A stretch of 64,000 bases of DNA, from positions 129,624 to 193,623 of the forward strand of contig PKVY01000059.1 of NCBI GenBank assembly GCA_003131625.1. Direction: 5' to 3'. The stretch is from Acidobacterium sp. (GTDB taxonomy: Bacteria; Acidobacteriota; Terriglobia; Terriglobales; Acidobacteriaceae). The notes beneath the pieces are model-generated. The model saw nothing but the letters and a program-made list of their open reading frames with translations, searched no databases and was not told where the DNA came from. Position 1 is the stretch's first letter. Every line of letters begins with the position of its first letter. This document shows, piece after piece, positions 52,491 to 63,799 of the stretch. The position numbers were made by a program, and so were the translations under genes.

Positions 52491-54029
52491 TCAGATGAAC
52501 CATCTGCGATTAGCCGTGCTGTCTTTCCCATCATGCTTCGACTGACAGCTGAGTTGGCAGTTGTCATCCGCTCCGAGCCCGGAGTCGCCGAGACCCCCAT
52601 TAAGAAAATTTAGCGTCGTCATATCGCCACGGGCCGGTGAATCTGCTGAGAAGATCGTGTTCCTCAACAGTGCGGATGCAAGGAGCAGGCCAGAACCTAA
52701 CGATACAAAGCCTGCCGAGAAATCGGCGGGCGGGCGCACGACGTAATCCCTCAATGCAGCCTCTCCGAGCCTGCCGCACTGGGTACCAGACAAGTATTCC
52801 TCTATAGCTTCCGCATCCAAACCACGCGCCGTGAGGAATTCGCGTCGTTCGTGATCAGGCATTCTGCGGAGCTGATCTTCGAGCGCGCGCATCTTCTCGC
52901 CGTCCTTCCCCGCCGGGTTGAAGCAGGCGAGACAAGCTGCTCCGGATCGGCCGCTGTATAAATTGCTCTTGGCCTGAAGATTTAATGTGCTCCCGCCGAG
53001 CAGGAGCTGGGGATGAAGGCCCTGAACATCTTGGCGCGCAGCTCCCTTATCAACACATGAAGCCACAACTGAAAAGACCAGATCGTCGACCTCGTGCGCA
53101 ACGTCTGCGTGGAGACCGAGTCGTACATCTGCCGTATAGGACTTTATTGTTCCCAGAAAGGAGAAAGCCTCGATGCCTCGGGCTTTCAGCGCACGCCCAA
53201 TCGCGTGGACCTTGTGCTGTCCAATATCCAGCCAGCCCGCCAGTAGGCAGCGATTCAGGCTTGTGTCGTCATAGTGATCGTCATCAATCAGAACGAGATA
53301 ACCTTCAGCGAGTCCAAGATTGGCGATGATATAGGCTAAGGCATTTCCGACAGCACCGGTACCGACAATGTGGGTTGGCGGAAGGATTGTGCCCGAAATT
53401 GCCGGGCCGTCGTGGAGATCCATCCAATTCCGCGAAGATGCTCCAGACCAGAGAGAATAGCCGTCACCGGACAGCAACCTTCCGCGGCGGATACCCCGAC
53501 TGTGTTTGAAGATTTCGCCGGCCGCGAGAGCAGCGGCTAGGAACGGACCAAGCGGGTTTGGCGAGGCTGGCAGGACAGATTGGCTCGCATGGGATGGATC
53601 GCCGACCCAAGCTCTCCAGCCGTCGCCGACTGCAAGAAGTCTGTGGCCCTGACAGGGCTCCTGCGGAGCTTCTCCAATGAATACTGTGCAGTTAACAGTC
53701 GATGTGGTCCGCAATGTTGTTACAGAAACCGCACCATTGACAGCCCAAGCAGCTAGCGACCCCAGGCATGCTGGAAAGCGATTGCCGGAATCTCCACTGG
53801 GCAGTTTGATCAGAATGGGTGTATCCGGCGCAATGATTTCAATGTGTCGCACCAACCGAACCTGACGGCAAAGCAGGTTGACCAGACAGGACGCCAGAAG
53901 CTGGCCTGCGCAGGATGATGCCCAGCGCGCTGCGACGACGATGCGAATGCTCTGTTCATTGGCCTGCTGTAAGTCCCGCAACCCATCCGCGGCCAACAGA
54001 TGTCGATTGGCGATTCCATCGGTGTTCAT
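52491..54029 (-). CDS. E1-like ubiquitin-activating enzyme (ThiF/MoeB fold)
   Basis: This 512-residue protein has an unrecognised N-terminal domain (residues 1-215) and a ThiF-type adenylation domain. Visible are the nucleotide loop THIVGTGAVGNALAYII (near 220-236), acidic VLIDDDHYDDTSLNR (near 247-260), CLACF (Cys 366, 369) and CQLSC (Cys 491, 495) as probable zinc ligands, and Cys 418 in SGTQCGRLGEAALRDYVV, which could be the thioester Cys. It should adenylate the C-terminal Gly of the ubiquitin-like protein and pass it to the E2. It is the last of four tightly packed genes and overlaps the JAB gene by four bases. Confidence 0.85.
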   Translation of the reverse strand: MNTDGIANRHLLAADGLRDLQQANEQSIRIVVAARWASSCAGQLLASCLVNLLCRQVRLVRHIEIIAPDTPILIKLPSGDSGNRFPACLGSLAAWAVNGAVSVTTLRTTSTVNCTVFIGEAPQEPCQGHRLLAVGDGWRAWVGDPSHASQSVLPASPNPLGPFLAAALAAGEIFKHSRGIRRGRLLSGDGYSLWSGASSRNWMDLHDGPAISGTILPPTHIVGTGAVGNALAYIIANLGLAEGYLVLIDDDHYDDTSLNRCLLAGWLDIGQHKVHAIGRALKARGIEAFSFLGTIKSYTADVRLGLHADVAHEVDDLVFSVVASCVDKGAARQDVQGLHPQLLLGGSTLNLQAKSNLYSGRSGAACLACFNPAGKDGEKMRALEDQLRRMPDHERREFLTARGLDAEAIEEYLSGTQCGRLGEAALRDYVVRPPADFSAGFVSLGSGLLLASALLRNTIFSADSPARGDMTTLNFLNGGLGDSGLGADDNCQLSCQSKHDGKDSTANRRWFI

Positions 54030-54559
54030 CGCAGATCCTCCACCTGCACAGTCCCGTTGATAATGATGACGCGTCGCTCAGCGGAAGCTTGGTCAAGCAG
54101 ATGCCAGTAGTCGTTCTGCCATTCATGTATTCCAACGCCGATCGGGAAAGGCTGATTGCTGCGCCCATAATATGGAAAGACCAGGGAAACAACGCGGCGA
54201 CTGCTCACCATACGATCATCGTAAGAAGAATGTTCGACGCGCCTGCCAGGGTGGCTGTGAACCTGAGCAAGCGGCTTCCAGTCGTCGGGTAGACCATGAA
54301 CGACTTCGGCTAGGGCATCAGCAGGAATGGTGTAATTCCCCCAGGTCATCCGCTGACGTGGCGCAACGACAAAAGCGACCCTGCCGTTTCCCGCGGCATC
54401 CCTTGGACCATACCAGAGGAGACCGCTTTCCCGGCGACCCGCCCGACCCAATAGCAAGGTTGTCGCAGTTAGCGCATGGGTCGGCACACTCAACCGGAGA
54501 TCGACCGGCACATAAGGGCACGGCGGCGGCAACCTGAAAAGATCATCTTCACTGTCCAC
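54026..54559 (-). CDS. JAB/JAMM metalloprotease (deubiquitinase-like)
   Basis: The GTG at 54559 inside the E2 3' end gives 177 residues; an ATG at 54649 is further back and adds residues unlike the family. The JAMM signature is complete: catalytic Glu in RRESGLLWYGP, HSHPG for zinc ligands and SSYDD for the Ser/Asp pair, in the order H-x-H-P-x7-S-x2-D. Such enzymes in bacterial ubiquitin-like operons trim the precursor C-terminus or cleave conjugates. The ubiquitin-like protein here ends GGA, so one residue should be removed to expose Gly-Gly. The gene overlaps both neighbours. Confidence 0.87.
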   Translation of the reverse strand: MDSEDDLFRLPPPCPYVPVDLRLSVPTHALTATTLLLGRAGRRESGLLWYGPRDAAGNGRVAFVVAPRQRMTWGNYTIPADALAEVVHGLPDDWKPLAQVHSHPGRRVEHSSYDDRMVSSRRVVSLVFPYYGRSNQPFPIGVGIHEWQNDYWHLLDQASAERRVIIINGTVQVEDLR

Positions 54560-55076
54560 TGGCCGAGAAACGTCCTCCGTAGAATGAGGTGAGCGCTTTG
54601 CGAATCGCTGTGATTGTGGTGAGGAACGTGTCAGTTTCCCTCCATACATGTTCAGGCCTTACCTGATGCAGGAACTCGTAGAACTCGAGGGTTGCCGAAC
54701 AGCAAATCAGCTGAACCGGAGCGGCCTGCGGCGTCCGCCGGTAAGCAACATGGGTATAGCATTCCGAACTCGTGAGTTTCGGCACAAACCGCTGATCGTC
54801 CGGATAGACATAGCTTTTGGTTTCAGGATTGACGAATTGCGCACTCGGCGGCCATTTGCGATATGCCTGGAAGCCGAGCCGCACAAGATAGCTGTCCTCA
54901 TTGCCTTGGTATGTGCCAGCCATCGGAACCAGCAGTGACAACTTGTTCAGGCGTGACCACCCCAGTTCTTCAAGGGATGAAGCCCCCATGATCCTCAGAA
55001 CGCGCGGAATGTCCTCGTCAAGCGCGGCGGCGCCCGCGTGGAGATCCTGCGTCGGCAGCTCGTTTGCCCGTGCCAC
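54549..55076 (-). CDS. E2-like ubiquitin-conjugating enzyme
   Basis: This 175-residue protein resembles prokaryotic E2/UBC-fold proteins. A strand region YLVRLGFQAYRKWPPSAQFVNPETKSYVYPDD has the PPxxxFVNP pattern, then YTHVAYR, and VQLICCSATLEFYEFLHQVRPEHVW holds the probable catalytic Cys (125 or 126). C-terminal helices follow (TFLTTITAIRKALTSFY). It would take the ubiquitin-like protein from the E1 and transfer it to targets. It begins two bases after the ubiquitin-like gene and overlaps the JAB gene, so the four genes form one unit. Confidence 0.78.
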   Translation of the reverse strand: MARANELPTQDLHAGAAALDEDIPRVLRIMGASSLEELGWSRLNKLSLLVPMAGTYQGNEDSYLVRLGFQAYRKWPPSAQFVNPETKSYVYPDDQRFVPKLTSSECYTHVAYRRTPQAAPVQLICCSATLEFYEFLHQVRPEHVWRETDTFLTTITAIRKALTSFYGGRFSASGQ

Positions 55077-55078
55077 GA

Positions 55079-55510
55079 TTAAGCGCCGCCAGTCTCGGAG
55101 GCGATGCCGAAGCGGAAGTTCTCGATGACCTTCTGCCGGCGTGCCTCTTCGAGCGTTAGTCCGAGGTAGTTCATCAGCGATTTGGGGTGTTCACCTCCCG
55201 TCTGGAACACATCCTTCGGCTCACGAGCAATCTTGAGCTCGATATAGGATTTGTCCCACACCTGCTGGAGCGTGGACGAGAGCTTCTCCCTGAACGACGC
55301 CTTCTCCACTTCGTTCACGTGGGTTACGTGAACTTCAACGATGTCGCGGTCGCGCTCTGCGTCCTTGATCTCTTCGATGGCCCGCTCAACGTCCAGTTCG
55401 GCAGCGGCTTCCTCGGCGCGCGCGCCGGCCAGCCGCATTTCGGCGGCCTCAAGATCGTGAGTCGCCGCCGCCAAGGGATCGTTGTTGTCTGGTTTGCTGT
55501 TCTCCGTCAC
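55079..55510 (-). CDS. Ubiquitin-like modifier with N-terminal coiled coil, C-terminus GGA
   Basis: The GTG at 55510 follows GGAGAG by six bases and gives 143 residues. Residues about 12-55 are Ala/Glu-rich and helical (LEAAEMRLAGARAEEAAAELDVERAIEEI), a likely coiled coil. The remainder has beta-grasp-like alternation (IVEVHVTHVNEVEKASF, SYIELKIAREPKDVF, then a helical LGLTLEEARRQKV and the strand NFRFGIAS) and ends TGGA. A Gly-Gly tail plus one residue is what a JAB protease would mature for E1 activation. With E2, JAB and E1 genes directly downstream, a modifier role is well supported by context, less by its own sequence. Confidence 0.75.
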   Translation of the reverse strand: MTENSKPDNNDPLAAATHDLEAAEMRLAGARAEEAAAELDVERAIEEIKDAERDRDIVEVHVTHVNEVEKASFREKLSSTLQQVWDKSYIELKIAREPKDVFQTGGEHPKSLMNYLGLTLEEARRQKVIENFRFGIASETGGA

Positions 55511-55580
55511 AAGACACTCTCCGGAGGCCCCCGTCAGGAAGCCTCCCATATGTCATGCTCTCGACCGGAGCGAATTGGAC

Positions 55581-55656
55581 TGCTCCAAATCGAGATTCTT
55601 CACTTTGGCCCGTTTTTCGACCGCGTACACCGTCCAAATCCACGAAATTTGGAGCA
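55581..55656. promoter_or_regulatory. Inverted-repeat operator in the divergent promoter
   Basis: TCCAAAT (55633..55639) and ATTTGGA (55647..55653) form a perfect repeat with a seven-base spacer. TGCTCCAAAT (55581..55590) is a perfect ten-base inverted partner of ATTTGGAGCA (55647..55656). The three half sites lie between the ubiquitin-like gene (start 55510) and the sigma-like gene (start 55689), so one regulator could bind and loop to control both directions. Confidence 0.6.
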
Positions 55657-55688
55657 TCATAAGGGAGAAAGGGCTTGCGGCGGGCCAC

Positions 55689-56333
55689 ATGCAAGAAACG
55701 GCGGGACTGCCGGCGCAGACGGATAGAATTGCCGGGCCAGAGGAGGTCCGCCAGGCAATTTCTGCCCTTACCGAGGGAGAGCTGCTCAAGCTCCAGCGGC
55801 TGGCGGAGCGGGCGATCTTTCGCCTCAGACGAAGGGTCTGGGGGGTTGAGGCCGGCGATCTTCTGAACGACGCAGTTCTTCGGCTGCTCAATGAGAAACG
55901 CCGGTGGAAACCGAAAAGGGTCGATCTGGTGGGACAACTTGCCGGAATTATCGCCAGTATCGAGTCTGATTGGCTCAAACGCGGGAAACGCGGTGAGGTC
56001 CCCATTGTCGAAGCCGACCTCAGGCGTGACGATCCAGAGGGCGCGGAAGTTCCCACCGCTCTGGAATTGGCGGCTGACCCACGGCCTGATCCTGAGCAAG
56101 TGGTGCTCGCGAGTGAGGAGCTGACCCAGGAACAGCTCTTTCACCAAATTGAAGAACTTTTTCGCGAGGACTCGCTCGCGAGTCTCATCTCTAGCGAATG
56201 GCAGCGCGGGACCACCGGGCCCCAAATAATGAAGGCGCTCGATCTCACGCGCCAGCAATACGACACGGCCGTAAGGAGAATGGATCGAGCAATCCAAAAA
56301 CGCTGGCCGGAAGGAATGCCCCATGCCCACTGA
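55689..56333 (+). CDS. Sigma-70/ECF-like protein
   Basis: The ATG at 55689 gives 214 residues. A region 2-like segment (LLKLQRLAERAIFRLRRRVWGVEAGDLLNDAVLRLLNEKRRWKPKRVDLVGQLAGIIASIESDWLKR) and a C-terminal region 4-like helix-turn-helix (PQIMKALDLTRQQYDTAVRRMDRAIQKRW) are visible. Region 2 is not canonical, so it may be a sigma factor or a sigma-derived regulator. It is divergent from the ubiquitin-like operon across an inverted-repeat control region and overlaps the next gene by 11 bases. I infer that it drives or tunes that operon. Confidence 0.75.
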   Translation: MQETAGLPAQTDRIAGPEEVRQAISALTEGELLKLQRLAERAIFRLRRRVWGVEAGDLLNDAVLRLLNEKRRWKPKRVDLVGQLAGIIASIESDWLKRGKRGEVPIVEADLRRDDPEGAEVPTALELAADPRPDPEQVVLASEELTQEQLFHQIEELFREDSLASLISSEWQRGTTGPQIMKALDLTRQQYDTAVRRMDRAIQKRWPEGMPHAH

Positions 56334-56790
56334 CAGAGAACGCACAGAATTGGAAATCCTGTTCGCCAATCTTGCTCGAGGGGTAGAGAATGCTTCTCCT
56401 GAGGACCTTCTAGTGGAGGCTAAGGCGGAAGGTCAGGACACCGAACAGATTGCTTCCAGCGTCAGAGCTACTTTGTTTAACGCTGTTCACAGCTTTGAAC
56501 AGAGAAAACTCCATGCGGCCCGCCATGGATACAGAAAACGTTCCAGAGAACTGAGGAGTAGACGAATTGAGTTTCCGGCTACTCCTGCTGAACGTCTCGC
56601 GCTTCTGATAAGGGCAGCAAGCAGCGATGAGCGTGTCGCCAGGGTGACGGCCCGATTCAGAGATTTAAGGGACATGACGGACGAGGATGTTCAATCGGCC
56701 CTAGAGGATCTAATGGAGCTCGGCGCGCTTGATAGCGTCATGCAAGACAGTCGTGGCGGAGATGAACAAGCAGGGAACGACACCATTTGA
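56323..56790 (+). CDS. Unknown helical protein between sigma and ImmA genes
   Basis: I do not recognise this 155-residue protein. It is charged and mostly helical (TELEILFANLARGVENASPEDLLVEAKAEG..., RVARVTARFRDLRDMTDEDVQSALEDLMELGALDSVM), with a basic middle (RHGYRKRSRELRSRR). It overlaps the sigma-like gene by 11 bases and the ImmA gene by 29, so the three are co-expressed. Candidate roles are an anti-sigma factor or a repressor cleaved by the ImmA protease; both are inferences from position. Confidence 0.65.
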   Translation: MPTDRERTELEILFANLARGVENASPEDLLVEAKAEGQDTEQIASSVRATLFNAVHSFEQRKLHAARHGYRKRSRELRSRRIEFPATPAERLALLIRAASSDERVARVTARFRDLRDMTDEDVQSALEDLMELGALDSVMQDSRGGDEQAGNDTI

Positions 56791-57589
56791 GATCCTCGCT
56801 GAGCTAGGAATATACGAACCGGAGGATCTGGACATCGAGGCCATTGCGTTTCACTGCAGGGCTACGATTGTCTATAAGCCGCTTTTCGGCTGTGAAGCTC
56901 GCATCGTGGGCGTTGGCGACGAGGCAATCATCACGGTCAATACCAGGTCTACTCTTGAACGAAGACGATTCTCTGCCGGCCACGAACTGGGCCACTGGAT
57001 GCGCGATCGAGGAACGGCCGCCTTCCTGTGCGATGACAAGATGATTGACGGGGAATGGTCAAAAGAGAATCCGGAAAAGCGCGCCAACCGATTCGCCTCA
57101 GATCTGCTCATGCCGCCTAAGATGTTTCGCCCGCTTGCAAAAGGGCTTCCCATTACATTTACAACAGTCCAGGAGCTAGCCGGGGTTTTCAAAATGAGCC
57201 TTTCGGCCACGGCGATTCGGCTCGTCGAATACGGCTCCTATCCTGCGATGCTTATATGCAACGGATCGGAAGGCCGCAGATGGTATGTTCCGAGTTCAGA
57301 TGTCGAACGTCGGCTCTGGCCTGTGGATCGGCCCGGACAATGGACGCATGCATCTGGCATTCTGAGCGGAAAATCACGCGCGAGTGGGCCACATGATGTT
57401 CGCGCTGACGAGTGGATCAAGAACTTCCGCGCGGATCAATATTGGGTGAAAGAAGACTCAATTATGTGGTCTTCTGGTACGACGCTGTCCTTGATTTGGT
57501 GGGAAGATGAGAGGCAGCCAAAGGAGCTCGACGATTTCAAAGAGGAAAGCGGTTCATGGCGCACTGATGGAAGGCGAAATTGGGACTAG
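56762..57589 (+). CDS. ImmA/IrrE-family zinc metalloprotease
   Basis: From ATG 56762 the protein has 275 residues; GTG 56753 is an alternative start. The zinc motif RRFSAGHELGHWM (HExxH) lies near residue 76, followed by ENPEKRANRFASDLLMPPKMF with the third ligand Glu/Asn region, the usual ImmA/IrrE order. A C-terminal extension of about 100 residues (VPSSDVERRLWPVDRPGQW..., LSLIWWEDERQP) is not part of the core. These proteases cleave repressors or regulators after stress, so it probably relieves control of the neighbouring operon. Confidence 0.88.
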   Translation: MNKQGTTPFEILAELGIYEPEDLDIEAIAFHCRATIVYKPLFGCEARIVGVGDEAIITVNTRSTLERRRFSAGHELGHWMRDRGTAAFLCDDKMIDGEWSKENPEKRANRFASDLLMPPKMFRPLAKGLPITFTTVQELAGVFKMSLSATAIRLVEYGSYPAMLICNGSEGRRWYVPSSDVERRLWPVDRPGQWTHASGILSGKSRASGPHDVRADEWIKNFRADQYWVKEDSIMWSSGTTLSLIWWEDERQPKELDDFKEESGSWRTDGRRNWD

Positions 57590-57685: not shown

Positions 57686-58561
57686 ATGAATAGCCCAAAG
57701 CTACATCATTATGTCCCGCAGTTTTATCTCCGACGATTTGTCGACGATTCGGGGCGCCTATGGGTATGGGATCGTGACAATGACCGCACATTCGCAGTGA
57801 AGCCAGATAACGTAGCAGCTGAGCATAGCTTCTATTTGTCGGATGAACTGGCCGAACTTGGTGAAGATGCACTCGCCATGGAAAAGCAGTTCTCCGAGAT
57901 TGAAGGAGAGGTCGCTCAAATAACCTCCCAATGGCTTGATTGGCTCCGTGAGATGAGCCCAGGAGAACCGATTCCGATCCCGTACGCGAATCGAGAATTG
58001 CTCTCTCTCCATATCTCTTTGCAATTTCTCCGCACGGTTGATACGAGAGATGTTCTGGCAATCTTCGGCGAAAGGACCGAAGGGAGGGCATTGTCGCCCG
58101 AACAGAGACGCAACTTGCACATGTACATGCTGTGGAACAGCCAATTGGTTCACGGGCTCGCCGAAAGAATAAGAACGGCCACGTGGATCTTTGGCAAGAA
58201 CGACACCGAGGTTCCGTTCGTCACATCGGACAACCCTATTGCCTTTAGGACGGGTGACAACTCCATGTGGTGGAGGAATGGCCTCCGAACTCCCGGCACG
58301 TACGCCGTGTTTCCGCTAGCGCCGGACATTGTGATGTACTGTCACCCGAGAGAACCGCCGTGGCTCGCTATCACAGATCTCAACGAATGTTTATCCCCGG
58401 TTCGTTGCACGCAAGAGATGGTAGAGAGTGAGAACTCCGGCCAAGTATTCATGACATCTCGATTCGTATTTTCGCGGCGCGCCCAATTTGACAGTGAGCG
58501 AGAATTTGCCAAAACGATTGGCACCGACATCTACGCTCGTGATCGGAATCACGAAGAATAG
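57686..58561 (+). CDS. DUF4238 family protein
   Basis: This 291-residue protein has the N-terminal signature HHYVPQFYLRRFVDDSGRLWVWDRD of DUF4238, then VAAEHSFYLSD and, near residue 180, VPFVTSDNPIAFRTGD followed by YAVFPLAPDIVMYCHP. The family is uncharacterised; members are often near defence genes, and the conserved His, Arg and Asp residues suggest an enzyme. It is separate from the ImmA gene by about 96 bases and ends at a hairpin terminator. GC is lower than in the transfer regions. Confidence 0.82.
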   Translation: MNSPKLHHYVPQFYLRRFVDDSGRLWVWDRDNDRTFAVKPDNVAAEHSFYLSDELAELGEDALAMEKQFSEIEGEVAQITSQWLDWLREMSPGEPIPIPYANRELLSLHISLQFLRTVDTRDVLAIFGERTEGRALSPEQRRNLHMYMLWNSQLVHGLAERIRTATWIFGKNDTEVPFVTSDNPIAFRTGDNSMWWRNGLRTPGTYAVFPLAPDIVMYCHPREPPWLAITDLNECLSPVRCTQEMVESENSGQVFMTSRFVFSRRAQFDSEREFAKTIGTDIYARDRNHEE

Positions 58562-58698: not shown

Positions 58699-59397
58699 TC
58701 AGGAGAACGTCCGTCGACCAAGCGGGTCATTCTTGAAATGCATATTGTTCACTTGTACCCAATGCCGTTCTTCGGTGTCGCGTGGTTTCTTCCACGGCCT
58801 TGATAACCCCACCGACAACAGGACGTCTTCCTTCACGAGCCGATCTGCAAGGGATCTTATTAGGCGATGACGCGGCGTCTCTTGATCATCTTCGTACAGC
58901 CTCAGATCTGTAACAGAAAAAGCTGGCGCGAAGGTACCATCATCCAAGCGTAGTCGAATCTTGTCATAGGGATCGACATATAAGCTTGAACCCGTTGGCA
59001 AAACCAGACAACCCAACGAAGCAGCGCCTTGGTTTAGATCAACCGCGCACGCTCGACCATGCCGAGCGAGACAGGGACCAAAGACCGCCGCTAGATCTGT
59101 CGCCGCTTCTTGTTGGATCATGTTCCAGAAATCCTGCGGTTCTGCCATGCCAAGGAGCTTAAGATTTCCGGAGTTAAACTGGTGGTCTTCGAGTTCAGGC
59201 GCAGTTCCCACGAAGCGTGTCGGCCCGAGGTCGACCATCGCTCCAATTTCAAAGACACCGCCGTTTTTCAGGAGCAAATCAACTCCGAGGCGTCTCCCCA
59301 GAACCGGTCGCACATGTTTACCGTTGTTGAGATCGATTCCGGCCACGCAAATGTAGCCTGGTTGCATTCTAGTGAGGTGACTTACAGCGATCTTCAT
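58699..59397 (-). CDS. Dual OB domain-like protein
   Basis: The ATG at 59397 (MKIAVSHLTRMQPGYICVAGIDLNNGKHVRPVLGRRLGVDLL) gives 232 residues. The N-terminal 90 residues read like the dual-OB-domain proteins that occur beside DUF488 genes, with ICVAGID...HVRPV and FEIGAMVDLGPT patterns. A cysteine region (FGPCLARHGRACAVDLNQGAASLGCLVL) and a second beta-rich unit (DKIRLRLDDGTFAPAFSVTDLRLYEDD) follow. It ends a leftward operon of two DUF488 genes. Nucleic-acid binding is plausible but unproven. Confidence 0.6.
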   Translation of the reverse strand: MKIAVSHLTRMQPGYICVAGIDLNNGKHVRPVLGRRLGVDLLLKNGGVFEIGAMVDLGPTRFVGTAPELEDHQFNSGNLKLLGMAEPQDFWNMIQQEAATDLAAVFGPCLARHGRACAVDLNQGAASLGCLVLPTGSSLYVDPYDKIRLRLDDGTFAPAFSVTDLRLYEDDQETPRHRLIRSLADRLVKEDVLLSVGLSRPWKKPRDTEERHWVQVNNMHFKNDPLGRRTFS

Positions 59398-59426
59398 AGC
59401 GACCTTCGCGGAACGAGGACTGTTGC

Positions 59427-59867
59427 TTAAATGATGTGTGTGATCTCCAAGCTGCCGCCCCATTTGTCTCTGAGATATTCAGCAACGAGGCGCCTGTGGC
59501 ACCGGTCTGGCCGTTCTTCACTGCAGAGCAGGCAGGAATCTTCCATGACTCTGGGTGACACGCTCTCTTCGACATGCCGTTCCCGCATTAGAGCAAGGAA
59601 GCGATCTTCGTAGACCCGCCAATCTCCCTTCTCCTTCTTGTAGGCATCAAGCATGTCCCGAGTGGGGGCCAATTCTGGGAGGTGCAAGTACTCCATTTGG
59701 CATATCACATCTAGAAGGTAACGGAGGTCGTCCTTCTTTGTGAAACCAGCCAGTTGTGAAACATTGTTGAGGCGCACATCGATGAGGCGTTTTGCGCCTG
59801 ACTCCTTTAGCTTGGAAAAAAACGCCCTTGCAGACTTCTTTGTGAAGCCGATGGTATAGATCGTCAT
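59427..59867 (-). CDS. DUF488 family protein (first paralogue)
   Basis: This 146-residue protein starts MTIYTIGFTKKSARAFFSKLKESGAKRLIDVRLN and contains the DUF488 signatures: TIGF near the start, LIDVRLN, LPELAPT and a C-terminal SCLLCSEERPDRCHRRLVAEYL cysteine-histidine motif. DUF488 proteins have a small nuclease-like or reductase-like fold of unknown activity. It overlaps the other DUF488 gene by four bases and is followed by the dual-OB-like gene. Confidence 0.85.
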   Translation of the reverse strand: MTIYTIGFTKKSARAFFSKLKESGAKRLIDVRLNNVSQLAGFTKKDDLRYLLDVICQMEYLHLPELAPTRDMLDAYKKEKGDWRVYEDRFLALMRERHVEESVSPRVMEDSCLLCSEERPDRCHRRLVAEYLRDKWGGSLEITHII

Positions 59868-60487
59868 CCCGCTGTTCGCTCCCAAATCTCGGGCTCAGAT
59901 GACTCATCGCGGTCCGGTTGAGTGTACGCAATTTTCTCCTCCTGCAACCGATAAGCCTCTGCGATCAGTTGGTTCTGTGGCAAGAACATGTCGGGCAAGG
60001 ACAATGATTGAATGAGACGATTGATCGCGTCTTCATGGGTCTCGAGTGTGCCGTTTGCATGGATGTGCGAAACTGAGATACCTCGGCATTCAACATGTCT
60101 GGCAACTAGAATCGCGCGGTGACACTTGAGAGGCTCCTTTTCAGCACACATCAGCGAGATTCGATACTTCTTCAGGCCATCTTCGATTCGATCCAGTCCT
60201 TTGGCGAACAGAGATGTCTGTGCAATTCGGTCATAGATGACGCGGCCGTTTTCGTAACAGTTTTTGTCGGTCGTCCGCGCACCAAGCTCATCACCTAAGA
60301 AAACATATGCAATCCCGGCTTGCTTCAAGGCTTCTTTGAGCGCTTCGCGATTGAATTGGGGGTTAAGCCGACTGTATGGCTGGGAGCGAACATCACACAG
60401 TGCTTTGATATCGTGCCGCAATAACAGCGCAATGAAGTGCGGCACCGTATGGGTTGAATGGCCGATCGTGAACACTGCGTTTTGCAT
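59864..60487 (-). CDS. DUF488 family protein (second paralogue)
   Basis: From ATG 60487 (MQNAVFTIGHSTHTVPHFIALLLRHDIKALCDVRSQPYSRLNPQFNREAL) this has 207 residues. TIGHS, CDVRSQPYSR, YVFLGDELGAR and SLMCAEKEPLKCHRAILVARHV are the DUF488 hallmarks. It is the longer, more typical form; the next gene is a shorter diverged paralogue. Two DUF488 genes with a dual-OB gene suggest a three-part complex. GAGG upstream supports this start over ATG 60514. Confidence 0.87.
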   Translation of the reverse strand: MQNAVFTIGHSTHTVPHFIALLLRHDIKALCDVRSQPYSRLNPQFNREALKEALKQAGIAYVFLGDELGARTTDKNCYENGRVIYDRIAQTSLFAKGLDRIEDGLKKYRISLMCAEKEPLKCHRAILVARHVECRGISVSHIHANGTLETHEDAINRLIQSLSLPDMFLPQNQLIAEAYRLQEEKIAYTQPDRDESSEPEIWERTAG

Positions 60488-60589
60488 TCCAAGCGCCCTC
60501 ACTGATTGTTCCATAACCGAACGGTTGAAGACACGGCTGTGACCCCTTATTTTACTCGCGCTAATTGTGGCGTACATTTGGGCTCTGGC

Positions 60590-61989: not shown

Positions 61990-63123
61990 ATGGGCTTCGA
62001 TCACTCCCACTATGTTCCAATTCTCAAAGGTAAGCAGGGTGAACTAAACGCGCTTCAGAGCACCGACCCGAAGCTGTTAACGAAAGTTACTCCGCTGGTC
62101 GAGATACCCCCAATCCCGCCTGCGTGGCCAGAGGGTGAAAATCAGAAGCCTGTGCCGGGGAAGACGATCGATGAACACATCAAATCGGTAGCCAAAGCAT
62201 TCACCAAGGCTCTCAAGGGAATGCCAGCACTGTTTGTCGATGGTTTTTACATCGAACTTGAGGATGAGCTTGAAAACGGTTCATCCCCGGTGGATGCGAT
62301 TTTCAATGCGCTCCGCTCTGCGAGCGTTCCATTCATCCCAACAATAGGTCTGGACCGTGTGGAAGATTATGCGGATTCAGTCAAGGTCGCCATCGAAACG
62401 GACAAGCGTGGATGCTGTTTAAGGCTCGTCGAGTCAGACTTGGAGAGTTTGTCGGAATTAGGGGGACAAATTGATGGCCTGCTAAAGATCCTCGGCATTC
62501 CTCATGACCAAGTAGATCTGCTCGTCGATTTTGGGCCTAAAGTTCCACAAAAATCAGCTTTGCCGTTCCAAATCGATGCGCTGCCAGCACTGGAGGCTTG
62601 GAGAACCCTGACCGTCGCGTCATCATCGTTCCCGGCAAGCATGATGGGTTTGAAGACAAATAGCATAGAAGAGCGAGAACGTGAAGAGTGGTTGGCATGG
62701 TTGTTCGTGCGCTCAAAGAAGAAGGCGGTAAAACGAGTGCCAACTTTTGGCGACTACGCGATTAACCACCCGATCCTTACAGAGATTAACCCGAAGCTCA
62801 TGCTGATGAGTCCCAATATTCGCTATACGGACTCCGTCAATTTTGTTATTGCTAAGGGACAAGCGCAGCCTCGGAAGAAAAAAAAGCAGACCCCCGAAGA
62901 GGCCGCCGCAAGGGCAAAGCTGGCGCCTACGGTCCAATATCCAATTCTTGCCGCGAAGATAAAAGCCCACCCTGCTTGGAAGGGTCCGAGATTCAGTGCC
63001 GGGGACCATTTCATCGATAGGTGCGCCCGTAAGGAGTGCGTTGGTAGCTCGACAGACTGGAGGGCTGCTGGAACCTGCCATCACATTGCCTTAGTCGTGC
63101 AGCAGATCGCCAGTCTCCCCTAG
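61990..63123 (+). CDS. Beta family protein (Beta_protein domain)
   Basis: This 377-residue protein opens YVPILKGKQGELNALQSTDPKLLTKVTPLVEIPPIP, the characteristic start of the beta-family proteins, and closes WRAAGTCHHIALVVQQIAS, the family's usual C-terminus, so it is complete. A central region reads FIPTIGLDRVEDYADSVKVAIETDKRG, followed by LDFGPKV-like and ASSSFPASMMG segments. The family is of unknown function and often sits beside sce7726-type nuclease-like genes, as here. The two genes converge and overlap by 113 bases. Confidence 0.82.
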   Translation: MGFDHSHYVPILKGKQGELNALQSTDPKLLTKVTPLVEIPPIPPAWPEGENQKPVPGKTIDEHIKSVAKAFTKALKGMPALFVDGFYIELEDELENGSSPVDAIFNALRSASVPFIPTIGLDRVEDYADSVKVAIETDKRGCCLRLVESDLESLSELGGQIDGLLKILGIPHDQVDLLVDFGPKVPQKSALPFQIDALPALEAWRTLTVASSSFPASMMGLKTNSIEEREREEWLAWLFVRSKKKAVKRVPTFGDYAINHPILTEINPKLMLMSPNIRYTDSVNFVIAKGQAQPRKKKKQTPEEAAARAKLAPTVQYPILAAKIKAHPAWKGPRFSAGDHFIDRCARKECVGSSTDWRAAGTCHHIALVVQQIASLP

Positions 63124-63688
63124 CACGCAAGGCTTCCCGAACCAGGGCAGAGAGTCGTTGGACTGGAATCTCTTTCGCCAAACGTGCAACGAGACACTCC
63201 ATCGGCTTTGATCGAATGCCGGAATCTAATCCGAGGCTGCTTAGCAGACGGAGTGCTTCCGGACGCCACAAAAGATACGCAATTGATTCGGCGTGTGGGG
63301 CTGGGTTGCCGCCAGATTCGCGAATTCTCTCTAAGCGAATCCCGCCTCCCGTCGAACACGTCGCCTCAATGATGCCCCACCACTGCGGAATGATTGTTCT
63401 GGCCTGTTGCAGATGGCGCGCCGTAGTCACGAGGGTTGCCTGATCGAAAATCGCAGAGTAGGCATCAACCTGGGTCGGTAGCCGTTCCAGCGTATCCCGA
63501 TCACTTTTGATCTCATATCCGTGCGAACAGCCGTTGAGTGCCGCCACGTCTGCTCGGTTGGCTCCCCCGTAGATCGCGAACTCTTCAAGACAGACCAAGT
63601 CCGGATGCCCTTCATATTCGCCACGAATGAACGGCAGTAAAAGGGCACGGATTCCCGCATCGCGACGAATGTTTTCGTGCTCTGGCAT
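63011..63688 (-). CDS. sce7726 family protein (PD-(D/E)XK-like)
   Basis: From ATG 63688, eight bases after GAGG, the protein has 225 residues. ANRADVAALNGCSHGYEIKSDRDTLERLPTQVDAYSAIFDQATLVTTARHL shows a nuclease-like core: Asp in RADVA and the ExK pair in YEIKSD, the sce7726 pattern. The C-terminal 37 residues lie antisense to the beta-family gene and are basic. Together the two products may form a defence or DNA-processing pair; no activity is known for the pair as far as I recall. Confidence 0.8.
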   Translation of the reverse strand: MPEHENIRRDAGIRALLLPFIRGEYEGHPDLVCLEEFAIYGGANRADVAALNGCSHGYEIKSDRDTLERLPTQVDAYSAIFDQATLVTTARHLQQARTIIPQWWGIIEATCSTGGGIRLERIRESGGNPAPHAESIAYLLWRPEALRLLSSLGLDSGIRSKPMECLVARLAKEIPVQRLSALVREALRARGDWRSAARLRQCDGRFQQPSSLSSYQRTPYGRTYR

Positions 63689-63799
63689 CAACGAGTCCTC
63701 GCTCGGCTCAAACCCCAAACCGATTCGTCCGTCGATGCAACGTCAAGAAGGGAGCCAAGGCCTGATGGCAGCAAGCCTCGCGGTCTAGTGTACACTCTG

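What the first reader, a model, noticed from the sequence alone, without database searches (positions are those of the whole stretch)
52491..55510. Four-gene bacterial ubiquitin-like conjugation operon
Directly visible: a modifier ending GGA, an E2-like protein with PPxxxFVNP and a candidate catalytic Cys, a JAMM protease with HSHP/SxxD, and a ThiF-type E1, all overlapping or within two bases of each other. Bacterial operons of this kind are known (Bil and related systems), some shown to act against phage. The order modifier-E2-JAB-E1, the coiled-coil modifier and the unrecognised N-terminal E1 domain may place this one in a less described subtype.
Basis: partly seen in the sequence, partly recalled or inferred. 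Interest (0 to 1): 0.8.

Follow-up and report, generated by a model that had tools for sequence, protein, structure and literature searches.

The report
Bacterial ubiquitin-like operon with sigma switch
Four adjacent genes look like a bacterial relative of the ubiquitin tagging machinery used against phages, and the genes beside them look like a damage-sensing switch, built on a sigma factor, that turns the machinery on.

Summary
On the minus strand lie a ubiquitin-like protein ending TGGA, an E2, a JAMM protease and an E1. E1 and JAMM protein match solved BilD and BilC; the E2 model's best, though weak, Foldseek matches are chains of the solved Bil E1-E2-Ubl complex; the modifier is modelled as a helix plus one beta-grasp. 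Gene order is the ordinary Bil order and the E1 N-terminus aligns with BilD, so those two novelty arguments fail. Different from described Bil: the single-domain modifier and a separate E1 clade (97/97). The surprising part lies outside the given coordinates. The divergent neighbours are a sigma-like gene, a 155-residue protein and a CapP-like protease. I found this three-gene cassette at 17 loci; 13 of 17 face E1/ubiquitin-like operons of several types and one faces CBASS. GTCC-N17-AGCAT occurs twice in the 64-kb window, both between operon and sigma gene, pointing outward. With one mismatch allowed, such an outward pair stands at 10 of 18 loci against 1 of 9498 control segments; exact pairs at 3 of 18. 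Five close relatives carry an HTH plus ImmA pair instead. Function, trigger and anti-sigma role are untested inference.

The parts
55079..55510 (-). Ubiquitin-like modifier (BilA-like), 143 aa: N-terminal helix 12-55, beta-grasp 57-138, flexible tail TGGA
   Evidence: model pLDDT 80.1, pTM 0.59; VIA best Z 11.2, rmsd 2.1, 82 residues; Foldseek alone weak, best 8.5e-4. C-terminal part aligns with the C-terminal part of the L011 protein (42% identity), a multiubiquitin protein whose best Pfam Multi_ubiq stretch is N-terminal
54549..55076 (-). E2-like protein (BilB-like), 175 aa; candidate catalytic C125 in QLICCSA
   Evidence: Model pLDDT 70.6; Foldseek ranks 1-3 are chains C/D of 8tz0/8tyz, E 7.1e-3 to 2.7e-2, none under 0.001; the 50 VIA rows shown are E2 or UEV entries by title, best Z 7.9, rmsd 3.0, 106 residues; C125 in 8 of 8 relatives read
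54026..54559 (-). JAB/JAMM protease (BilC-like); frame open to 54649, GTG start at 54559 inferred from homologues
   Evidence: Pfam Prok-JAB 2.2e-4, below cut-off; PDB BilC 8tyx 5.1e-4; JAMM residues invariant in 4 of 4
52491..54029 (-). E1 (BilD-like) with ThiF adenylation domain and candidate catalytic C418
   Evidence: ThiF 4.6e-12; BilD 5.2e-28; PDB BilD 2.7e-10; CGxxG(E/D) around C418 in 7 of 7 rows of its group and in 0 of 7 other E1 rows
55555..55580 (-). Promoter-like motif GTCC-N17-AGCAT reading towards the Ubl operon
   Evidence: One of only two exact matches in the 64-kb window
55632..55657 (+). Promoter-like motif GTCC-N17-AGCAT reading towards the sigma-like gene
   Evidence: The other exact match in the window
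55689..56333 (+). ECF-sigma-like protein, 214 aa
   Evidence: NCBIfam TIGR02937 6.6e-4, 19.3 bits, under the curated 42.9; 8 of 12 family members match, best 1.2e-7
56323..56790 (+). 155-aa protein of unknown fold, proposed anti-sigma / protease substrate
   Evidence: Relatives lie between the sigma-like and ImmA genes in the three-gene cassettes; role is inference
56729..57589 (+). CapP-like ImmA/IrrE metalloprotease with HELGH; ATG start at 56762 more likely than the TTG at 56729 (inference)
   Evidence: PADLOC capP 2.3e-55; Pfam Peptidase_M78 6.2e-13; PDB CapP 7t5t 2.6e-6

Best explanation
The four genes form a Bil-type protein-conjugation pathway. The JAB protease removes the last alanine of the modifier to expose its Gly-Gly; the E1 adenylates it and takes it on C418; it passes to E2 C125 and on to a target, probably a phage protein; the JAB can also remove it. 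Expression is kept low until the neighbouring cassette fires. The sigma-like factor recognises GTCC-N17-AGCAT and drives both the Ubl operon and its own operon. The 155-residue protein holds the sigma factor. The CapP-like protease, activated by single-stranded DNA from damage or infection, cuts that protein and frees sigma. Shown by sequence: the gene families, the conserved cassette, the paired motifs. Inferred: chemistry, target, DNA-damage trigger, anti-sigma role, anti-phage effect.
For: Conjugation: BilD/BilC matches; E2 and beta-grasp models; conserved candidate catalytic residues; TGGA tail in 7 of 7. Switch: sigma-ORF-ImmA in one order at 17 loci, 13 of 17 divergent to E1/Ubl operons of at least four architectures and 1 of 17 to CBASS. 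An outward motif pair (at most 1 mismatch, N17, within 350 bases upstream of sigma) at 10 of 18 loci, all 10 with E1/Ubl operons, against 1 of 9498 control segments (same 10). In the own genome 3 of the 5 exact GTCCRA-N15-AGCAT sites lie at its two cassettes. Close relatives carry HTH+ImmA in the same divergent place (L011 annotated; L012, L014, L015, L025 by eye and alignment), so the regulators look interchangeable. CapP is activated by ssDNA and cuts the CapH repressor (PMC13373217 passages; PMC10904395 passages).
Against: No experiment. The E2 model is poor in the active-site stretch (pLDDT under 50 at 118-122, 126-131 and 139-147) and its fold scores are middling. PADLOC finds no BilA or BilC here and only a marginal BilB (0.036) at E <= 1. 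ORF155 has no detectable likeness to an anti-sigma factor or to the CapH-type proteins (hhalign E 0.27). The sigma match of the window protein is below the curated score, Pfam finds no sigma domain in it, and the best PDB sigma match of the family profile is E 0.29. The exact motif is absent upstream of sigma in all 5 loci fetched after it was defined; they show it only with one mismatch (3 of 5). Four of 17 cassettes lack a Ubl operon and the motif pair; L058, L136 and L020, with E1 operons, lack the N17 pair too, and L046 has one N17 and one N18 copy. The total of 5 sites in the own genome is about what chance gives (my arithmetic). No phage data.
Confidence: 0.58

Rival explanations
1. The neighbouring cassette is a variant of CapH+CapP: the 155-aa protein is itself the DNA-binding repressor cut by the protease, and the sigma-like gene has a minor or accessory role.
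For: Same place and orientation as the HTH+ImmA pair of relatives; ImmA matches capP over nearly its full length; one ORF155 relative (L021) gives a marginal capH hit, 0.079; the sigma match of the window protein is sub-threshold.
Against: No HTH family found in ORF155; hhalign against the CapH-type proteins E 0.27; a paired bipartite motif with fixed 17-base spacing, one copy for each divergent gene, fits sigma promoters better than a repressor operator.
Confidence: 0.17
2. The operon conjugates the modifier, but through oxyester intermediates on Ser/Thr as recalled for Bub pathways, not through Cys thioesters.
For: A Ser follows the Cys pair (ICCSA) and is invariant in the 6 relatives aligned besides the window, Thr in L025. 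The Bub chemistry is recalled; the paper is not held.
Against: E1 C418 motif in 7 of 7 of its group and E2 C125 in 8 of 8; a C-E-Y-H pattern close to the CEHH motif reported for BilB; Pfam finds no DUF6791, DUF6527 or Prok-E2_E in the operon.
Confidence: 0.1
3. The operon serves housekeeping protein modification or sulfur transfer, not defence.
For: No phage test exists; ThiF/JAB proteins also serve sulfur metabolism (general knowledge).
Against: Sparse: E2 relatives in 2 of 399 genomes of the class, one of them the own genome; neighbours match defence-candidate models PDC-M45B/C and capP; the same switch sits beside canonical Bil and CBASS.
Confidence: 0.1

Closest known systems
Bil (bacterial ISG15-like) system, BilABCD
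   Same: Gene order Ubl-E2-JAB-E1; E1 related to BilD over the N-terminal and adenylation regions; JAB related to BilC; E2-like fold with a similar Cys/Glu/His pattern; beta-grasp modifier whose Gly-Gly must be exposed by trimming
   Different: Modifier has one predicted beta-grasp behind a helix rather than two Ubl domains; E2 pattern is C-x5-E-x-Y-x3-H, not CEHH; E1 forms its own clade; PADLOC profiles for BilA and BilC give no hit; regulator is a sigma-like cassette
Bub and multiubiquitin operons (DUF6791/DUF6527/Multi_ubiq/Prok-E2_E; that these domains mark Bub is partly recalled)
   Same: Relatives L011 and L012 of this operon carry a Multi_ubiq modifier; the same cassette stands beside operons with these domains (L043, L047, L134, L138)
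   Different: No DUF6791, DUF6527 or Prok-E2_E in the window operon; separate JAB gene; Cys residues conserved
CapH+CapP, CapW, CapK+CapS controllers of immune operons
   Same: CapP-like protease; regulatory genes adjacent to an immune-type operon; likely DNA-damage input (inference)
   Different: A sigma-like protein plus a 155-aa partner stand where the HTH repressor would be; outward-facing paired promoter-like motifs suggest activation rather than derepression
Operon types 6a-6e of Iyer, Burroughs and Aravind 2006
   Same: Bacterial E1/E2/JAB/Ubl operons in general, including 6d with separate Ubl and E2 genes
   Different: As described in section 14, the part I read, none of the five types has just this gene set; their Table 1 was not read

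Membership tests
Bil (BilABCD) | Four genes Ubl, E2, JAB DUB, E1 | tested here: met
Bil (BilABCD) | E1 of BilD type: inactive plus active adenylation halves and a catalytic Cys | tested here: met
   BilD profile 5.2e-28 over residues 24-287, 8tyz 2.7e-10 over 59-397, C418 motif 7 of 7 in its group; the two-half architecture is taken from PMC11354881 (passages), no E1 model was made
Bil (BilABCD) | E2 with CEHH motif (Cys138, Glu144, His146, His151 in the reported BilB) | tested here: inconclusive
   Window has C125, E131 (+6), Y133 (+8), H137 (+12): Cys and Glu match, one His is Tyr, the other is one residue off; E is Q in L011
Bil (BilABCD) | JAMM protease with E, HxH and SxxD | tested here: met
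   all invariant in 4 of 4
Bil (BilABCD) | Modifier with two tandem ubiquitin-like domains (ISG15-like) | tested here: not met
   One long helix and one beta-grasp predicted; so filed as Bil-like, not as BilABCD in the strict sense
Bil (BilABCD) | Protects against phage by tagging the tail fibre | not testable with these tools
   Needs phage challenge; reported for Collimonas Bil (PMC11364771 passage)
Bub | Bub-type domains (DUF6791, DUF6527, Multi_ubiq, Prok-E2_E) in the operon; link to the name Bub is partly recalled | tested here: not met
   (E up to 1) finds none in the four proteins
CapH+CapP controller | CapP-like ImmA metalloprotease | tested here: met
   PADLOC capP 2.3e-55, PDB CapP 2.6e-6
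CapH+CapP controller | Adjacent HTH repressor CapH | tested here: not met
   Adjacent genes are a sigma-like protein and ORF155; no capH hit for either, no HTH family in ORF155, hhalign E 0.27
ECF sigma factor | Sigma regions 2 and 4 | tested here: inconclusive
   TIGR02937 positions 17-158 of 165, E 6.6e-4, 19.3 bits against a curated 42.9; 8 of 12 family members match, best 1.2e-7; Pfam Sigma70_r2 in 6 of 12, not in the window protein; PDB profile search best sigma 0.29
ECF sigma factor | Transcribes from its own conserved bipartite promoter | not testable with these tools
   Motif pair found; transcription not measured

The most novel reading that the evidence does not exclude
The sigma-ORF155-CapP-like cassette is an undescribed family of immune-operon controllers that uses a dedicated sigma factor: a ssDNA-activated protease frees the sigma, which fires two back-to-back promoters and so commits the cell to express whichever ubiquitin-like (or CBASS) operon lies opposite. 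One switch has been plugged into Bil, Bub-like, JAB-ThiF and CBASS operons.
Probability: 0.55. Interest if true: 0.75.

Novelty: new variant of a known kind. Interest (0 to 1): 0.62.

Why it matters
How bacteria keep costly tagging systems silent until needed is open. Repressor-based controllers (CapW, CapH+CapP, CapK+CapS) are described beside Bub and CBASS operons (PMC13373217); none of the paper listings I saw describes one built on a sigma factor. If true, the GTCC-N17-AGCAT motif gives a direct way to predict which operons the switch controls, and the modifier with a coiled coil gives a Bil-like enzyme set with a simpler, single-domain tag.

Tried and rejected
Close E1 relatives by peptide patterns in genome contigs: none; the E2 alignment gave 4 loci there and none in viral contigs. 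ORF155 as a CapH relative: not supported by profile comparison. Unsupervised per-locus search for any shared outward bipartite word: not informative, since shuffles reach nearly the same score at most loci; the specific motif was tested instead. ORF155 relatives in plasmids: none by tblastn. Chance-like matches dropped: E2 to a capsid protein at 0.45, E2 to DUF7665 at 0.17 (DUF7665 is hit at 1e-32 by the E2 of L046), modifier to FimV at 0.011 and to chorismate mutase at 0.0087. Plain Bub membership was dropped for lack of those domains. The papers on Bub and Bil chemistry (PMC12885553, PMC12145246, PMC11476048) are not held, so their content is recalled or second-hand.

Rows left out: of 17 sigma places, 10 carry all three genes; the other 7 (L050, L051, L053-L057) do not, some on short contigs where genes may be cut, and were not counted. 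Of 11 plasmid records, regions of 5 were fetched (L020-L024); two have all three genes, three lack the ImmA gene; L020 is kept as the 18th motif locus. Of 21 places, five new strong ones were fetched; 13 weak ones (E 1.6e-7 or weaker) were not. Of 23 Multi_ubiq loci, 21 were examined. L048/L049 and L043/L044 are near copies, so the 13 of 17 are about 11 independent cases. In L044 and L049 the E1 gene was identified by BLAST to other loci only. L013 and L017 were not in the tree. The own-genome motif sites on C15 and C89 were not looked at.
Full report
What is there. On the minus strand, four frames abut or overlap: Ubl 55079-55510, E2 54549-55076, JAB 54026-54559 (frame open to 54649), E1 52491-54029. 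Pfam finds ThiF in the E1 (4.6e-12) and a sub-threshold Prok-JAB in the JAB protein (2.2e-4), nothing significant in the other two. PADLOC finds BilD in the E1 (5.2e-28, residues 24-287) and a marginal BilB in the E2 (0.036); no BilA or BilC hit. Against solved structures the E1 matches BilD 8tyz (2.7e-10, residues 59-397) and the JAB matches BilC 8tyx (5.1e-4); the E2 and the modifier have no sequence match of note.

Relatives. The same operon is in a family relative (L013; its E1 is split by a frameshift), a Sinorhizobium fredii plasmid (L011, where the modifier is annotated 'multiubiquitin domain-containing'), a Rhizobium plasmid (L012), an Acidobacteriia bin (L014), Rhizobium esperanzae (L015), Novosphingobium taihuense (L016) and, truncated, a Bradyrhizobium (L017). 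A more distant one is L025. It is rare: the E2 profile found 2 of 399 genomes of the class, one being the own genome. In an E1 tree of 14 rows six of these (window, L011, L012, L014, L015, L016) form a clade with 97/97 support, apart from three other Bil-type or Bil-like E1 lineages; L025 joins with weak support (76/80). The window pairs with the Acidobacteriia bin, so the source is probably an acidobacterium (inference).

Modifier. The model (pLDDT 80.1, pTM 0.59, 4 sequences) is a helix 12-55, then strands 57-64 and 70-76, helix 81-92, strand 100-104, helix 120-125, strand 133-138 and a disordered TGGA tail. The 50 VIA rows shown match mainly residues 55-143 and are, by title, ubiquitin-like or related domains (USP DUSP-UBL, UFM1, UBX, FERM, PI3K); best Z 11.2, rmsd 2.1, 82 residues. 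Foldseek alone is weak (best E 8.5e-4). In L011, L012 and L015 the N-terminal helix is replaced by longer sequence; Pfam reads Multi_ubiq, two stretches each, in the two tested, L011 and L012, the best stretch being N-terminal. The C-terminal parts align. TGGA ends 7 of 7.

E2. Model pLDDT 70.6, with the helix, four-strand meander and C-terminal helix expected of E2s but an unreliable active-site stretch. Foldseek's first three matches are chains 8tz0_C, 8tyz_C and 8tz0_D of the bacterial E1-E2-Ubl complex (E 7e-3 to 2.7e-2), which I take to be the E2 chains from their length and alignment; none is under 0.001. The 50 VIA rows shown are E2 or UEV entries by title, best Z 7.9, rmsd 3.0, 106 residues, a middling score. 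The stretch is QLICCSA or QLVCCSA in the six relatives aligned, while L025 reads QLLCFTF, which points to the first Cys, C125, as the catalytic one. Glu follows at +6 (Gln in L011), Tyr at +8, His at +12, against Cys-Glu(+6)-His(+8)-His(+13) reported for BilB (PMC11354881, passages).

E1 and JAB. The E1 has GTGAVG at 223, CLAC at 366 and C418 in CGRLGE; the CGxxG(E/D) pattern is in 7 of 7 rows of its group and in 0 of the 7 other E1 rows. The JAB has Glu, HSHP, six residues, SxxD, all invariant in 4 of 4.

Order. BilA-B-C-D is the naming order of Bil, and the own genome carries a second operon on contig C74 (L046) with BilA (4.5e-40), BilB (1.6e-50) and BilD (1.2e-130) in that order and a JAB-like frame between B and D (by eye). 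The order is therefore not a mark of a new subtype.

The divergent cassette. On the plus strand lie a sigma-like gene (55689-56333), ORF155 (56323-56790) and an ImmA gene (56729-57589), overlapping. The ImmA matches capP at 2.3e-55 and solved CapP 7t5t at 2.6e-6, with HELGH. The sigma assignment rests on the family and is weak for the window protein: TIGR02937 at 6.6e-4, under its curated score; 8 of 12 members match, best 1.2e-7; 6 of 12 match Sigma70_r2, not the window protein; two relatives on plasmids are annotated sigma-70 family; the PDB gives only 0.29.

Its neighbours. I searched the sigma in 298 genomes of the order (17 places in 16 genomes, 10 with all three genes), in plasmids (11 records, 5 fetched, 2 with all three genes) and, with a profile, in 396 genomes of the phylum (five new strong ones fetched, 5 of 5 with all three genes). 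Of the 17 three-gene cassettes, 13 face an E1/Ubl-type operon: Bil-like here; canonical Bil (L046); BilC/BilD-like (L137); Prok-E2_E plus ThiF (L043 with a JAB part and DUF6527, L044 by BLAST, L134, and L136 where Prok-E2_E is sub-threshold); DUF6791-ThiF with DUF6527 (L047, with Multi_ubiq, and L138); ThiF, in L048 with a sub-threshold JAB (L045, L048, L049, L058). One faces CBASS (L135: SAVED-HNH, cyclase, E2). Three face other genes (L021 Beta_protein, L024, L052). L020 has sigma and ORF without ImmA beside Multi_ubiq and ThiF genes. Seen from the other side the cassette is a minority choice: of 21 Multi_ubiq loci of the order examined, 1 has it (L047), 5 have an HTH plus ImmA pair (L091, L093, L096, L101, L107), 2 have an ImmA hit alone and 3 an HTH hit alone, and 10 have neither, some at contig ends. 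Within the window's own group L011 has an annotated HTH plus ImmA pair in the same divergent place, and L012, L014, L015 and L025 have one by eye and alignment; these five seeded the HTH profile, and four of them the ImmA profile, so their hits there are partly by construction. L016 has an HTH-like gene by eye but no profile hit; L013 has none.

Promoters. Aligning the intergenic regions showed GTCC-N17-AGCAT. In the whole 64-kb window it occurs exactly twice, at 55555-55580 (minus) and 55632-55657 (plus), both between the two operons and pointing outward. In the 5.39-Mb genome GTCCRA-N15-AGCAT occurs five times, three of them at the two cassettes; the tool's reversed control pattern occurs once; five is about what equal base composition would give, so the argument is the place, not the number. 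Within 350 bases upstream of sigma an outward pair is found at 10 of 18 loci with one mismatch allowed (window, L043, L044, L045, L047, L048, L049, L134, L137, L138) and at 3 of 18 exactly (window, L044, L047); random segments of the same loci give 1 of 9498 and 0 of 9498 (without the test of direction, gave the same ten loci and 1 of 6330). L046 has one N17 and one N18 copy; L020, L058 and L136 lack the pair, as do the four loci without a Ubl operon.

How it most likely works is given under best explanation; chemistry, trigger and target are inference. Literature: passages of PMC13373217 (12 of 17 places shown) say 219 of 544 Bub operons have CapW or CapH+CapP and 59 have CapK+CapS; the 'sigma factor' passages I saw concern the anti-sigma likeness of CapK/CapS. 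Searches for a sigma/ImmA controller listed no paper that, by title or start of abstract, describes one; only open-licence papers are held and supplements were not read, so prior description is possible. Section 14 of PMC1779556 was read, and passages of PMC11354881, PMC11364771 and PMC10904395.

Noticed in passing
window 58699-60577: A DuOB-domain gene and two DUF488-like genes (name recalled) on the minus strand; the latter two match PADLOC candidates PDC-M45C (5.2e-71) and PDC-M45B (8.5e-84). L137 has look-alike genes (by eye) downstream of its sigma cassette.
   Followed up: partly
window 61990-63718: A gene that reads like Pfam Beta_protein and one like sce7726 (by eye, not searched); a Beta_protein gene and a gene annotated sce7726 also stand beside the sigma cassette of Azospirillum plasmid L021.
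   Followed up: no
window 57686-58561: DUF4238 protein (2e-33) about 100 bases behind the ImmA gene, with a weak PADLOC DUF4238-Pers match (5.3e-4).
   Followed up: no
L046 5410-5889 (own genome, contig C74): The E2 of the second, canonical Bil operon (PADLOC BilB 1.6e-50) has a single Cys, in NEYCFRFEL, and none further down where a catalytic Cys would be expected; it may work without an E2 thioester or the copy may be altered.
   Followed up: no
L135 5419-11311: The sigma-ORF-ImmA cassette faces a CBASS operon (SAVED-HNH effector, cyclase, E2), so the switch is not confined to ubiquitin-like operons.
   Followed up: partly
L013 7257-8805; L017 9001-10994: Decayed copies: the E1 in L013 is split by a frameshift and the operon in L017 lacks the front of its E2.
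   Followed up: no
L012 1806-3881, L015 5844-7919, L025 7066-9124: In these relatives a third gene of 207-209 residues with a GNAT-like look (by eye) sits with the HTH and ImmA genes, a three-gene divergent cassette of its own.
   Followed up: no
L022, L023: Bradyrhizobium plasmids carry the sigma gene with a short ORF but no ImmA, with an rRNA adenine methyltransferase-like gene nearby on the other strand.
   Followed up: no
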